Shown here: positions 6,469 through 57,547 of the stretch, piece by piece
Position numbering within the stretch: the stretch's first letter is position 1
Layout of the letters: the number at the start of each line of letters is the position of its first letter
DNA from: Chrysophaeum taylorii
Taxonomy: Eukaryota > Sar > Pelagophyceae > Pelagomonadales > Pelagomonadaceae
Assembly (NCBI GenBank): GCA_029834535.1
Contig: JAQMWT010000348.1
Location: forward strand, 1 to 64,000
Reading direction: 5' to 3'
Length of the DNA: 64,000 bases
Made by a program: the position numbers and the translations under genes
The notes under the pieces: model-generated
What the model was told of the DNA's origin: nothing
Databases searched by the model: none
The model's input: only the letters and a program-made list of their open reading frames with translations

Positions 6469-8029
6469 ATGACCGCAATCCGGGTACTACTGGCTATTGC
6501 AGCATACAGGCAATTGCCTGTCTACCACGCAGACGTCCCGAACGCCTTCGTTCAGTCTGACATTGATGCCAACGTCTATGTTCAGTTACCAGACGGCATC
6601 AAGCTTATCTACCCCGATGACGCTAAGTACAAGGGCCGACGCCTACCGAAACTGCTGAAGTCACTTTATGGACTTCGACAATCACCATCTCTTTGGAACA
6701 AAGAGATAGACGGCTTCTTCCGTAGCCTTGGCTACAAGCGCCTGCATTCGGACTCTTGCCTATATGCTCGAGTATCCGCACATGCTAAGTTCGTCGTATG
6801 CAGTCTGTCTGTAGACGACATTGTTATTGTGTCCAACGATGACACTCTTCGTACTGAGTTACAGGATGCCCTTCACAAACGGTATGCTGTAGAGCAGTTT
6901 GAACCTGTCCATACCCTCCTAGGCATGCGTGCTGTAGAGCAGTTTGAACCTGTCCATACCCTCCTAGGCATGCGTGTGTGTCACACATCTGATGGATCCA
7001 TTTCTCTGGATGTGCAAGCCAAGCTTGATGAACTCTTCGCTGATCACCCTGTCTTGCAGCAACTGACCCCGCTTAAATATCCTATGCCATCGTCCTTCAA
7101 GTATAAAGATGGCACTCCCAGCTCTGAAACAGAGTTGTACATCAATTCGCACTTTGCCACCCTCCTTGGCAAGCTGGTGTTCATGCAAGTGGCCTGCAGA
7201 CCTGACTTCTCGCAAGCCCTGGGCAGATGTTCGCGTGGTATGCATGCACCCACGTATGTTCACGTCCAAATGCTAGAGCACCTGCTTCGCTACCTCAAGA
7301 AGCCGGAAAACCGCTCACTTCGCCTCTGGTTCCATCCTAAAGGTAATGCTATTGAGCTCACCTTCGCACTGTCTCCGCTAATCGAATTGATCTCTCCACT
7401 GTGGTCGACTACCAACCGCAGGATGTATCCACTGGACAGTTTGATCTCTTAGTTGCCATGGTTGACGCTGACAACGCCCCTTCCTTAGCACAGGAAGATA
7501 GGAAATCTACCACCGGGTTTGTCTTCTATCTTTTCAACTGCCTTATAGGTTGGAAAAGCAAGCTTCAACCGATTGTCTCCTGCTTAACTCACGAAGCTGA
7601 GTTGATAGCCCTCAGTATTTGTGCTGATGAAGCTGTTTGGCTACGCAAGCTGCTGTTGGAACTCTCCTTTGTCGTCAACCCCACCTCTACGTCAACAATA
7701 TTAATGGTGAGAACACCGCTGATCCCGTTGATTTCGATGACAATGACAACCCAATTGCTGAAGATATGCGCTTACCTCTCTTGTCTGACAATGCCGCTGC
7801 TGTTCACATCTCTAATAACCCAGATGGATCCTCTCGATCCAAGGCACTGTCGACCAGATGGTTTAAGATCCGTGAGTACATCTCGCTACAGAAAACTCGA
7901 GTCCATCATGTTCCCGGCAAGCTAAACGTGGCTGATGGTTTTACAAAACCACTTGCGGCTGAGTTCTCCACTTTTCGTTCTCTACTCGGTATGCATCATG
8001 CCTCTCACGACAATCCTTTACAGGATTGA
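6469..8029 (+). pseudogene. Ty1/copia retrotransposon pol remnant (reverse transcriptase and RNase H)
   Basis: Frame 6469-7452 carries the copia RVT_2 landmarks: DVPNAFVQSDIDANVYVQLP, SLYGLRQSPSLW, LSVDDIVIVS (consensus YVDDxxI, Tyr replaced by Ser), LLGM and KLVFMQVACRPDF. RNase H follows in two further frames: 7401-7690 (DRKSTTGFVFYLF, GWKSKLQPIVSCLTHEAEL, ADEAVWLRKLL) and 7637-8029 (STRWFKIREYISLQ, VHHVPGKLNVADGFTKPLA), so at least two frameshifts have broken it. A 45-bp segment is exactly duplicated in tandem (6886-6930 and 6931-6975), adding 15 in-frame residues. Gag, protease and integrase are absent upstream: the element is 5'-truncated. Order RT then RNase H at the end of pol fits copia, with no integrase after RNase H. 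Confidence 0.9.
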
Positions 8030-16188: not shown

Positions 16189-16428
16189 GTTGGCGGGTGG
16201 TTTGATGAGGCTGCGTTCGATGAGCCGTCCATGTCTGCGTCTCCTCCGAGTATTTAATGGCAGCCCTGCGCCGAATGCGTCATTTGCTTCTCGGAGAAAT
16301 TCGTAGGTCCTTTGACGACGTGGACGATGCGCTATTTGCGGCCAGCCTTCAACGACACGCGCGAAAGTGGAAAAAAAGAGCGCGAACCTTACCACGCTCG
16401 CTGTCCGAAAGAAAAGCCCTGACGTGGC

Positions 16429-17472
16429 ATGCCGGAGCTCCCAGAGGTCGAGGCCGCTCGGCGGTTCATGGAGCGTGTGGGCGTGGGGCGGCGGATCGTG
16501 GAGGTGGTCGCGGTGGAGCAGGGTACGGGACCGCGGTCTGGTCTGTTCGACGACAAGGTGATCTGCGAGGAGTCGGCCTCGTCGTTTGCCACACGGATCC
16601 AAGGTCGAGATATCTGCGGCGCGCGGCGCAAGGGTAAGCAACTGTGGCTGGAGCTGGACGGGGTCGGATTGGTGGTGCATAACGGCATGACGGGCGCACT
16701 CGTCGCCAAGGGCCTGGCCGTCCCCCAGTACAAGAATGCCAAGTTCGACGACGAAGAGTGGCCCCCAAAATTCGCCAAGCTCGAGCTCGTGCTGAGCGAC
16801 GGTACGCGCATATGCTACTGCGACTCGCGCCGCTTCGGCCGCGTCTTACTGCGGGACGATCCTCTCCAATCCCCGCCCATCTGTGACCTCGCCCCCGATC
16901 CCGTCGCCGAGTGCCCTGGGAAGGACGTTTTTGCCGCAAAATTCGCTGCCAAAAAATGCGCCATCAAGGCGGTCTTGTTGGATCAGAAGGCTGTGGTCTG
17001 TGGGGTTGGCAACTGGATGGCCGACGAGCTTTTGTATTTGGCGGGCGTTCACCCGGCGACGATTGCGAGCGAACTCGACGACTTTCAGGTTGGCCGCGTC
17101 CGCGACGCGCTCATCGAGGTCTGCCGCGTCGCCTGCGACGCCGACGCCGACGCCGCCAAGTTCCCGCCTTCCTGGCTCTTTCATCACCGCTGGGCTAATC
17201 AAACCTCGGGCTCCAAGCCCTCCCCCCTCGGCCAAATCCACTTCGCCACCATCGGCGGCCGCACGACCGCCTTCGTCCCCTCCAAGCAGAAAAAGATGAG
17301 TCCTCCTCCTCCTCCTCCTCCTTCTCCTCCTCCCCCTCCTCCTTCCGAAGGAAATCAAGCCACGCCGAAGCGGCGGCCACGTTCGAAAAATAAACGTCCT
17401 CGCGCCCCCGGAGTACCGAAGGCGGCTGCTGCCGACGTCGTCCCGCGACGCACGTCGCCGCGCCGGAAGTAA
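16429..17472 (+). CDS. FPG1: Formamidopyrimidine-DNA glycosylase (Fpg/MutM family, plant-type)
   Basis: 347 aa. Removes oxidised purines (8-oxoguanine in pairs with C, FaPy) and nicks the AP site by beta/delta elimination. It starts MPELPEVE, giving after Met removal the catalytic Pro2 and Glu3. The conserved Lys lies in RRKGKQLWLEL (about 66-74) and the void-filling segment is HNGMTG (84-89; consensus HLGMTG). DSRRFGRV follows near 130, and the helix-two-turn-helix motif is LLDQKAVVCGVGNWMADELL (about 183-202). No C4 zinc finger is present; GGRTTAFVPSKQ near 270 occupies its place, as in the zincless finger of plant FPG. The C-terminus is a low-complexity Pro stretch and a Lys/Arg-rich tail that may serve as nuclear localisation and DNA-binding extension. 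Nuclear action is inferred. Confidence 0.93.
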   Translation: MPELPEVEAARRFMERVGVGRRIVEVVAVEQGTGPRSGLFDDKVICEESASSFATRIQGRDICGARRKGKQLWLELDGVGLVVHNGMTGALVAKGLAVPQYKNAKFDDEEWPPKFAKLELVLSDGTRICYCDSRRFGRVLLRDDPLQSPPICDLAPDPVAECPGKDVFAAKFAAKKCAIKAVLLDQKAVVCGVGNWMADELLYLAGVHPATIASELDDFQVGRVRDALIEVCRVACDADADAAKFPPSWLFHHRWANQTSGSKPSPLGQIHFATIGGRTTAFVPSKQKKMSPPPPPPPSPPPPPPSEGNQATPKRRPRSKNKRPRAPGVPKAAAADVVPRRTSPRRK

Positions 17473-17538
17473 CTGAGAGAGAGGCGGCACGCGCCCCCAA
17501 GCCTGGCGTGGACTAGTTTAATGTAAGAGAGACGGCAC

Positions 17539-17838
17539 TTAGATCTCATCCTTGGTGACCAGGATGAACCCCAGTGCCATTCCCATCGCCGGCAGGAAGA
17601 GAGTCATGACCGGGACCAAGATAGGGGGCAAGTAGTCCGCGGTGAAGGCGTTCGCGGGTGCTGCGGCGAGGACGGGCGCGAGGGCCGCCGCCTGCATCAA
17701 TGCGGTCTTGTCCAAGCTCTCGAACGGCTTGTCGGTCGCTTGAGTCGTCGCCAAGGACGCCCGCGTCATCTCGAATCGCTGGGGTGCGGTGAAGGCGGCC
17801 GCGGTCGCGAACAGAGCGAGAAAGAGAAGCCGAGCCAT
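17539..17838 (-). CDS. psaI: Photosystem I reaction-centre subunit VIII (PsaI), nuclear-encoded precursor
   Basis: 99 aa. Residues 1-15 are a signal peptide (MARLLFLALFATAAA) followed by FTAPQRF, an ASAFAP-like cleavage context with Phe at +1 typical of secondary red plastids. Residues 16-44 are a Ser/Thr-rich transit region. Residues 45-64 are a second hydrophobic segment ending APANA, resembling a thylakoid lumen signal. The last 35 residues match PsaI (SYLPxILxPxxGxxFPAxxMxxxFxxxE): ADYLPPILVPVMTLFLPA followed by MGMALGFILVTKDEI, one transmembrane helix. PsaI is a small membrane subunit near PsaL in PSI and is plastid-encoded in most algae and plants, so a nuclear copy implies gene transfer. 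The tripartite leader argues against a plastid-DNA insertion (NUPT). Confidence 0.82.
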   Translation of the reverse strand: MARLLFLALFATAAAFTAPQRFEMTRASLATTQATDKPFESLDKTALMQAAALAPVLAAAPANAFTADYLPPILVPVMTLFLPAMGMALGFILVTKDEI

Positions 17839-18470
17839 GGGTCCTGTGCGTCGAGGTCAGCTTACTGCGGTGCACAAATGAATGCGCGCGCCTTAGTAAA
17901 AAAGACGTGTGTCTTGAAGCTGAATCTTGCGAGACTACGCTACGAACACAAAACCCTTGTTGATGTTGATACGGCGACCAAATTTTGGCGGAGGGTATCC
18001 ATCCGCGCCTAAACTTTACTGCCGCTAAACGAAAACAGAAAAACCAATAACTGCCCCGGGGCTCGGAGATGACCACGACTAGGCCCCACGGGACACCTTC
18101 GCCGGCACCCCTCACGTCTATCTTCGCGCAATCCACCAAAGCCCGTTACCGCCCCCGTTCTTCGCAGTCGACTTACAAAAAGGTACCCACGTGCTCCTAA
18201 AATCAAGAAGAGGAGGAAAAAGGCCCTCCCTCCTCCGCACACAGTGTCCAAGAAAAAGTCGAACGAGGTATGAATCAGCCTAGTTGCGTAAGCCGTGGTG
18301 ATTGACCAGCGAGAGCATCGCGTCGTCGTCGAACGGTGTAAATAACTACGCACGTGTTCCCCCGGGCCCTTCGTCACTTCCCAACAAGGAGAAACCTCTA
18401 AACAGTGATGAAAGCTAAAATAATAAGGTGTGCGTCTAGTAATAATATGCATCATGGAGGATGGGTCGGA
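17839..18470. other. Intergenic, no gene recognised
   Basis: Contains the short promoter region of the PsaI gene (right of 17838). A 148-codon minus frame (18009-18455) has no motif or credible composition. Confidence 0.4.
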
Positions 18471-18784: not shown

Positions 18785-18840
18785 CAAAGAAGAAGAAGAA
18801 GAAGAAGAAGAAGAAGAAGAAGAAGAAGAAGAAGAAGATC
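18785..18840. repeat. (GAA)n microsatellite
   Basis: About 18 GAA/AAG units just upstream of the small gene on the minus strand (CTT)n. Confidence 0.9.
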
Positions 18841-56593: not shown

Positions 56594-57547
56594 ATGCTTT
56601 TTTTCGTTTTCGTGAACGCCGCCGCTGAGGCCGCCGGGTGCAGCGACAGCGTGTGCGGGCGGTATTGCACCGCGGCGCACAAGTGCTACCGGTCGTCCAA
56701 GTGCGCGGGCGTGGGCGTCGCCTGCGCCGCCTCGTTGAATCGATCGCGTCACGTTAGGGGTCTGGTCCTCGGCCTCAAAGACGCGAGACCCCAGCTCGGG
56801 ACCTGCGCCGTGGTGTCCTCGTCGGACGCCCTTCTAGGCCGCGACCTCGGCCCGCGCATCGACGCCTGCGACGAGGTCTTCCGCATCAACATGGCCCCCG
56901 TGACCGGCTTCGAGCGCGCGGTAGGCGCGACGACGACGTTCGCCGTCACGAACGCGCCTAGCTGGCTCCACCCGAACGAGTTCGTCAACCGGACGGTGCT
57001 GCGGCGCGACTACTTTGATTCCGGCCACAAACGACCCGTCGTGTTCGTGCAAGACCCGCTTGTCGCAAGCGAGAGTGTCAAGTGCGGATTCAAGCACACG
57101 GCGAACGCGTACCGCCTCAAGGCGAGCGCCGCGCTCCGCGCGTGCACGAAGCTTGGGGGGTTTCGGTGCATCCTGATGAACCGGACCGTTGTCGACGCTG
57201 CCTGGCGGGTCTTCTGCGCCGCCGTCGTCGCGACTCGCTCCAAGAGTCTGGCACCGTCGACCGGCCTCGTCGCGGTCGTCGAGGCCGCGACGCGTTGTCG
57301 CCGCCTCGTCCTCTTTGGCTTTGGGAACCCGACCCGCAAGGGTCACTACTACGCGCCCGCGAGACGCGTCGGCCCCGAGCTCCACGGGGCCGTCGAGACC
57401 GCCGTCTTCCGCATATGGCAGCAGGCGGACCCCGCTCGTTTCGAGATGGTTGCCACTTCTGTCGCCGCCGCCACCGCCGCCGCAAGAGTACCTCGGAAGA
57501 GGAGCGGAGGAGGAGGACGACGTGATTTATTATTATTATCATTATAA
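56594..57547 (+). CDS. Sialyltransferase-like protein (GT29)
   Basis: 317 aa from ATG 56594; MLFFVFVNAAAEAAG is a signal peptide or short anchor. Sialylmotif L: GTCAVVSSSDALLGRDLGPR, then IDACDEVFRINMAPVTGFER (CAVVGNSGxLxxSxxGxxID.HDxVxRxNxAP in animals). Sialylmotif S: PSTGLVAVVEAATRCRRLVL, then FGFGNP. The C-terminal HGAVETAVFRIW contains the His and Glu of motifs III/VS (H...E). A Cys-rich stretch (CSDSVCGRYCTAAHKCY) follows the leader. In algae GT29 proteins may transfer Kdo or related acidic sugars rather than sialic acid; the substrate is not determined. The 3' end overlaps the convergent ligase gene by six bases. Confidence 0.85.
   Translation: MLFFVFVNAAAEAAGCSDSVCGRYCTAAHKCYRSSKCAGVGVACAASLNRSRHVRGLVLGLKDARPQLGTCAVVSSSDALLGRDLGPRIDACDEVFRINMAPVTGFERAVGATTTFAVTNAPSWLHPNEFVNRTVLRRDYFDSGHKRPVVFVQDPLVASESVKCGFKHTANAYRLKASAALRACTKLGGFRCILMNRTVVDAAWRVFCAAVVATRSKSLAPSTGLVAVVEAATRCRRLVLFGFGNPTRKGHYYAPARRVGPELHGAVETAVFRIWQQADPARFEMVATSVAAATAAARVPRKRSGGGGRRDLLLLSL

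What the first reader, a model, noticed from the sequence alone, without database searches (positions are those of the whole stretch)
17539..17838. Nuclear-encoded PsaI with tripartite targeting leader
The last 35 residues match photosystem I subunit PsaI, normally plastid-encoded. They are preceded by a signal peptide with an ASAFAP-like AFTAPQRF junction, a transit segment and an A-x-A thylakoid signal, i.e. a complete route ER - plastid - thylakoid. This is endosymbiotic transfer of one of the smallest PSI genes. It also implies insertion through the lumen-signal route, unlike plastid-made PsaI.
Basis: partly seen in the sequence, partly recalled or inferred. Interest (0 to 1): 0.8.

Follow-up and report, generated by a model that had tools for sequence, protein, structure and literature searches.

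The report
Nuclear gene for photosystem subunit PsaI
A small photosystem I gene that normally sits in the chloroplast appears to have moved to the nucleus of this alga and gained a three-stage address label that sends its protein back into the chloroplast's inner membrane.

Summary
Confirmed. The minus-strand ORF at 17539-17838 (99 aa) is a nuclear psaI gene. Its mature part hits PsaI in 57 of 57 PDB sequences (best E 3.4e-6); a profile of four PDB PsaI segments scores it 45.7 bits. Curated Pfam and NCBIfam cut-offs are not reached. All 30 relatives found keep A-x-A-F before the mature part; three are in transcriptome sets. The leader reads ER signal, AF junction, variable transit part, A-rich lumen signal. 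Ten of 12 antenna-gene loci of this genome show the AF junction; PsbO shares the lumen signal but not the AF. This genome's plastid contig carries psaA, psaB and psaJ but no psaI in its visible 95.6 kb; 8 kb is withheld. psaE is nuclear too. The closest named plastid relative is a pelagophyte, a group in which PsaI was scored absent for Aureococcus (PMC5643376). Nuclear psaI is known from Chlamydomonas (PMC11449065), so this is a new member of a known kind. The insertion machinery is not shown; a PsbW/PsbX-like route is as likely as a lumen translocon.

The parts
17539..17838 (-). nuclear psaI gene, single exon, 99-aa PsaI precursor with stop codon
   Evidence: ORF; PsaI matches; 30 relatives
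17794..17838 (-). residues 1-15, ER signal peptide ending ...ATAAA before F16
   Evidence: hydropathy peak 2.2 at residues 4-18; A-F junction also in 10 of 12 antenna-gene loci of this genome
17707..17793 (-). residues 16-44, plastid transit segment beginning F-T-A-P
   Evidence: least conserved part of nine full-length members, mean pairwise identity 0.35 against 0.78 for the mature part; its border with the next part is my choice
17647..17706 (-). residues 45-64, thylakoid lumen signal ending P-A-N-A
   Evidence: second hydropathy peak, residues 46-60; A[NSGH]AF[TSA] in 31 of 31 family members; similar stretch in this genome's PsbO leader
17542..17646 (-). residues 65-99, mature PsaI
16429..17472 (+). 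neighbour: formamidopyrimidine-DNA glycosylase gene, convergent, 66 bp from the psaI stop; context only
   Evidence: Pfam Fapy_DNA_glyco and H2TH

Best explanation
[quoted passage not shown] Shown: the protein is PsaI-like, the gene lies among nuclear-type genes, no psaI is in the visible plastid genome, and relatives keep the leader design. Inferred: the first 15 residues take the precursor into the ER; the A|F site admits it through the inner plastid membranes; the transit part is removed in the stroma; the A-rich signal and the PsaI helix insert as a hairpin; the lumen peptidase cuts after A64, leaving the mature N-terminus (FTADYLPP) in the lumen and the C-terminus (TKDEI) in the stroma, where PsaI joins PsaL and PsaB. 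The new leader would thus restore the topology that plastid-made PsaI reaches from its own start codon. The insertion machinery is open: direct insertion as for PsbW/PsbX, or cpSec.
For: PsaI identity. Nuclear context: ORF third-position GC 0.83 against 31.7% GC in the visible plastid; ORFs in the window include SNF2 helicase, M1 peptidase, sialyltransferase and a reverse transcriptase. One match in the 70.8-Mb assembly by full protein and one by PF00796 (weak, E 0.98). Plastid contig C697 carries psaA and psaB and psaJ, and by eye psaC and psaM, but no psaI frame above 10.4 bits. In Heterosigma psaI and clpC are convergent neighbours (PMC2410131, passage); here about 120 bp of spacer and trnT follow clpC. 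Leader controls in this genome: A-F junction in 10 of 12 FCP loci, six distinct leaders; PsbO with a lumen signal ending APAVA; PsaE, a stromal subunit (recalled), with only the two-part leader. Topology: PsaI residues 4-16 at a lumen-side cavity in Galdieria PSI (PMC12083527). Relatives in transcriptome sets and in Pelagophyceae sp. CCMP2097.
Against: 8,000 of 103,599 plastid bases are withheld, so absence is not complete. Curated PsaI models score below their cut-offs. No transcript, protein or localisation data for this species. Leader borders were read by eye and hydropathy; no TargetP or ASAFind was available. Only 14 of 31 family entries show the ER-signal A-F junction; the other 17 are short or have unlike N-termini. 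PsbO's own first junction reads S-L, not A-F; FCP locus L020 shows no A-F junction and L019 was not printed by the script.
Confidence: 0.88

Rival explanations
1. A plastid psaI still exists in the withheld 8 kb, and the nuclear gene is a second, partly redundant copy caught during transfer.
For: 8,000 N at C697:64001-72000. A gene in such a dual state is described for Psb28 in Thalassiosira pseudonana (PMC2950852, start of abstract in the listing).
Against: The hidden stretch presumably holds the rRNA operon (no rRNA hit in the visible part; no trnI(gat) or trnA), the end of atpA and most of psbB, and probably psbT/N/H (not seen elsewhere by a rough motif scan). By my estimate that leaves about 1 kb. 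Aureococcus, a pelagophyte, was scored as lacking PsaI (PMC5643376).
Confidence: 0.06
2. It is another single-helix thylakoid protein, such as PsbW or PsbX, that resembles PsaI by chance.
For: Two PsbW chains match weakly over residues 2-84 and 4-84 (E 0.15 and 0.24), that is, the leader and half of the mature part.
Against: The mature part alone hits PsaI in 57 of 57 PDB sequences, and no PsbW; the two NCBIfam hits of the window protein are both PsaI models, though below cut-off.
Confidence: 0.03
3. It is a plastid DNA fragment in the nucleus without function.
For: Nuclear plastid-DNA insertions are common in general (recalled); no RNA data for this species.
Against: A recent fragment would lack the leader and be AT-rich; this ORF has third-position GC 0.83, eight full-length relatives 56-68% identical, and three transcriptome-labelled relatives.
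Confidence: 0.02

Closest known systems
Plastid-encoded PsaI (PSI subunit VIII; PF00796, TIGR03052)
   Same: Residues 66-99 align without gaps to PDB PsaI residues 2-35, including LPP-ILVP and the acidic C-terminal end
   Different: Encoded in the nucleus with a 64-residue leader; below the curated model cut-offs
Nuclear PSAI of Chlamydomonas (PDB 6ijj_I, 106 aa, organism recalled) and PSAI1 (9mgw_I, 109 aa)
   Same: psaI moved to the nucleus in Chlamydomonas (PMC11449065, passage); precursor of similar length, alignment reaching 14-20 residues into the leader
   Different: Primary green plastid, so no ER signal is expected (recalled); taken as an independent transfer, not tested by a tree
Dinoflagellate PsaI
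   Same: PMC4079212 (one passage) cites a model with psaI among nuclear-encoded peripheral photosystem subunits; PsaI is in the Symbiodinium PSI structure (PMC11026431, passages)
   Different: Different plastid lineage; sequences were not compared here
PsbW, PsbX and CFo-II precursors
   Same: Nuclear or lumen-signalled single-span thylakoid proteins (signals recalled); spontaneous insertion per PMC8790069 (passages)
   Different: Photosystem II or ATP synthase subunits; the mature part of our protein does not hit them

Membership tests
PsaI (photosystem I subunit VIII) | Sequence homology of the mature chain to known PsaI | tested here: met
   57 of 57 PDB hits are PsaI; 45.7 bits with a profile of four PDB PsaI segments
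PsaI (photosystem I subunit VIII) | Curated model cut-offs reached (an annotation threshold, not a biological trait) | tested here: not met
   PSI_8 15.3 of 19.8 bits; TIGR03052 29.1 of 38.2 and NF008830 32.8 of 50
PsaI (photosystem I subunit VIII) | About 35 residues with one transmembrane helix | tested here: met
   35-residue mature part, hydrophobic windows 64-78 and 80-94; that they form one helix rests on homology
PsaI (photosystem I subunit VIII) | Part of the PSI complex beside PsaL and PsaB | not testable with these tools
   Of six Galdieria PsaI cavity residues (S4, P7, S8, I9, P12, L16) four correspond to identical residues here (P71, I73, P76, L80) and two do not (D68, P72), by the numbering; no complex data
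Transferred plastid gene (endosymbiotic gene transfer) | Gene in nuclear DNA | tested here: met
   Contig C348, 49-75% GC by 2-kb step, with eukaryotic neighbours
Transferred plastid gene (endosymbiotic gene transfer) | Gene absent from the plastid genome | tested here: inconclusive
   Absent from the visible 95.6 kb; 8 kb withheld
Transferred plastid gene (endosymbiotic gene transfer) | Expressed | tested here: inconclusive
   Three relatives with transcriptome labels; nothing for this species
Tripartite-leader thylakoid precursor of complex red plastids | ER signal with A-F junction, transit part, lumen signal with A-x-A | tested here: met
   By sequence and hydropathy with FCP, PsbO and PsaE of this genome as controls; no dedicated predictor run
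Tripartite-leader thylakoid precursor of complex red plastids | Delivered to the thylakoid and cleaved there | not testable with these tools
   needs cell experiments

The most novel reading that the evidence does not exclude
psaI, together with psaE, left the plastid early in the pelagophyte lineage, so the PsaI reported as missing from Aureococcus was overlooked in the nucleus. The move worked because a signal gained upstream is cut in the lumen almost exactly where the plastid gene used to start, making these algae a natural test of how a single-helix subunit keeps its topology after relocation.
Probability: 0.6. Interest if true: 0.5.

Novelty: new member of a known kind. Interest (0 to 1): 0.42.

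Why it matters
A published survey counts PsaI as absent in Aureococcus, while noting that divergent sequences may have been missed (PMC5643376). This gene and its relative in Pelagophyceae sp. CCMP2097, deposited as a hypothetical protein, suggest relocation instead. Some diatom plastids also lack psaE and psaI (PMC12412971; PMC4169464, where the fate of the genes was left open); nuclear copies with leaders of this kind are the thing to look for. In one genome a stromal subunit (PsaE, two-part leader) and a membrane subunit with a lumenal N-terminus (PsaI, three-part leader) can be compared directly.

Tried and rejected
Viral origin or mobile element: 53 pattern matches in viral contigs, none confirmed as a relative; no phage DNA match for window 16300-18100. 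RNA families in the window at gathering score: none; tRNAs: none. 18S identification of the species: all 11 RF01960 requests did not complete, so the class rests on plastid Ccs1 and is not settled between pelagophytes and dictyochophytes. Structure prediction was not run: a single helix with a leader would not discriminate. The motif scan used recalled motifs and missed psaJ, which the profile search found, and psaF, so it counts only as a rough check. P0010 was left out of the mature-part profiles because an insertion interrupts it. No tree was built: the mature part is 35 residues long.

Full report
What is there. The finding lies on the minus strand: an ORF of 99 residues from 17838 to 17539. 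The window is part of contig C348 of a 70.8-Mb, 697-contig assembly, 49-75% GC by 2-kb step. A formamidopyrimidine glycosylase gene converges on it, 66 bp away. Of ten further ORFs scanned, eight have Pfam hits, among them SNF2 helicase, M1 peptidase, ankyrin repeats, sialyltransferase and a reverse transcriptase.

Identity. Residues 66-99 align without gaps to PsaI. Of 54 PDB sequences at E<=10, 50 are PsaI; the other four (two PsbW, PsaF, PsbO) have E 0.15 to 1.5. With the mature 33 residues alone, 57 of 57 are PsaI. Pfam, TIGRFAM and PRK models of PsaI hit, all below their curated cut-offs; 11 of 12 members of alignment A1 hit PSI_8 at E<=1, best 0.00069. A profile of four PDB PsaI segments gives 45.7 bits to this ORF and at most 9.2 to any other of 1516 frames in the window.

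Family. One search gave 11 relatives, a second, by alignment, 30 including those 11 (E<=1, capped at 7996 candidates). The 11 are 55-71% identical to the window protein; the eight full-length ones in alignment A2 are 56-68%. Three carry transcriptome labels (P0009, P0012, P0014) and one, P0017, is named a hypothetical protein of Pelagophyceae sp. CCMP2097. All 31 members, the window's own included, have A[NSGH]AF[TSA] before the mature part. By segment, on nine full-length members, mean pairwise identity is 0.66 (signal), 0.35 (transit), 0.62 (lumen signal) and 0.78 (mature), as expected of a targeted precursor. An AF junction near the N-terminus is plain in 14 of 31; the other 17 are short or have unlike N-termini. 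The script's own count of 17 with a junction includes three where it caught another site (P0013, P0024, P0032). P0010 carries 24 extra residues inside the helix that read like an unspliced intron; its DNA was not seen.

Leader. Two hydrophobic stretches precede the PsaI part, at residues 4-18 and 46-60. The first ends AAA|F-TAP. Of 12 antenna (FCP) loci fetched from the same genome, 10 show an AF junction, in six distinct leaders such as SSAAAF-AP and VIAF-TNVP; L020 does not, and L019 was not printed by the script. PsbO of the same genome has a leader ending LATFAATAPAVA|ITS, like LAPVLAAAPANA|FTA here, but its first junction reads S-L. PsaE of the same genome, a stromal subunit, has only signal and transit: SAF-AP, a short transit part, then PsaE, with one intron with GT-AG ends. 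So the lumen signal sits where topology needs it and is missing where it does not.

Plastid genome. Contig C697 (103,599 bp, with a repeated end of 127 bp, so apparently a circle) holds psaA and psaB and psaJ; by reading ORFs by eye also psaC, psaM, psaL, psaF and psaD. No PsaI-like frame exists in its visible part: best 10.4 bits, E 0.086, a 19-residue frame. In Heterosigma psaI and clpC are convergent neighbours (PMC2410131, passage); here about 120 bp of spacer and trnT follow clpC. But 8,000 bases (64001-72000) are withheld. They presumably contain the rRNA operon (no rRNA hit elsewhere; no trnI(gat) or trnA elsewhere), the atpA end and most of psbB, probably also psbT/N/H. I estimate about 1 kb unaccounted for. 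PF00796 found one match in the assembly, this ORF, but that model is weak here (E 0.98).

Taxon. Among the best 120 of 1441 hits of the plastid Ccs1 protein the closest named relative is Aureoumbra lagunensis (57%), ahead of three named diatoms (44-46%); ten unnamed proteins rank above or beside it at up to 64%. The genome has at least 60 FCP-type matches. This puts it on the pelagophyte side; a dictyochophyte is not excluded.

Mechanism. In Galdieria PSI, PsaI residues 4-16 line a lumen-side cavity with PsaB and PsaL (PMC12083527, passages). I infer that the PsaI N-terminus is lumenal, so that a lumen-side cut after A64 gives the right topology. Of the six cavity residues four match here (P71, I73, P76, L80) and two do not (D68, P72). 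Whether insertion uses cpSec or is direct, as for PsbW, PsbX and CFo-II (PMC8790069, passages), is unknown.

Literature. psaI is nuclear in Chlamydomonas (PMC11449065, passages). A survey scored PsaI absent in Aureococcus, noting that divergent sequences may have been missed (PMC5643376, passages). psaI is lost from some diatom plastids (PMC12412971; PMC4169464; passages). Nine searches of the open-access library that bore on psaI (of these, 23, 28 and 36 listed only the first 20 of 24, 79 and 478 papers) showed me no report of nuclear psaI in a pelagophyte or other ochrophyte, in titles, abstract starts or the passages that I opened in 15 papers. The main pelagophyte plastid paper (Ong et al. 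2010) was seen only as a reference.

Verdict. Relocated psaI is a known kind; the ochrophyte case with this leader is a new member.

Noticed in passing
L030 (G000:C359:201591-201731), 1314-1692: psaE is also nuclear here, with one intron and a two-part ER-signal plus transit leader (SAFAP junction); the only PF02427 match in the assembly, so not in the visible plastid.
   Followed up: partly
P0010 (protein): A relative carries 24 extra residues inside the PsaI helix that look like a translated, unspliced intron, which would mark that copy as nuclear.
   Followed up: no
G000:C697:64001-72000: 8,000 bases of the plastid contig are withheld; the rRNA operon presumably lies there.
   Followed up: no
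L014:1-138 (C697:90001-90138), minus strand: Rfam IsrR antisense RNA hit opposite psbC; probably only because psbC is related to isiA, the target of IsrR (recalled).
   Followed up: no
G000:C88:35406-41267 and C539:24843-30127: Five antenna (FCP) gene matches in a row in each of two places, alike in score; in C88 the printed leaders are identical.
   Followed up: no
window 6469-7452: Reverse transcriptase ORF of the RVT_2 (copia-like) family, E 2.7e-28.
   Followed up: no
window 56594-57547: Glycosyltransferase family 29 (sialyltransferase) ORF, E 2.8e-21.
   Followed up: no
window 18787-18838: Run of about 17 AAG units.
   Followed up: no
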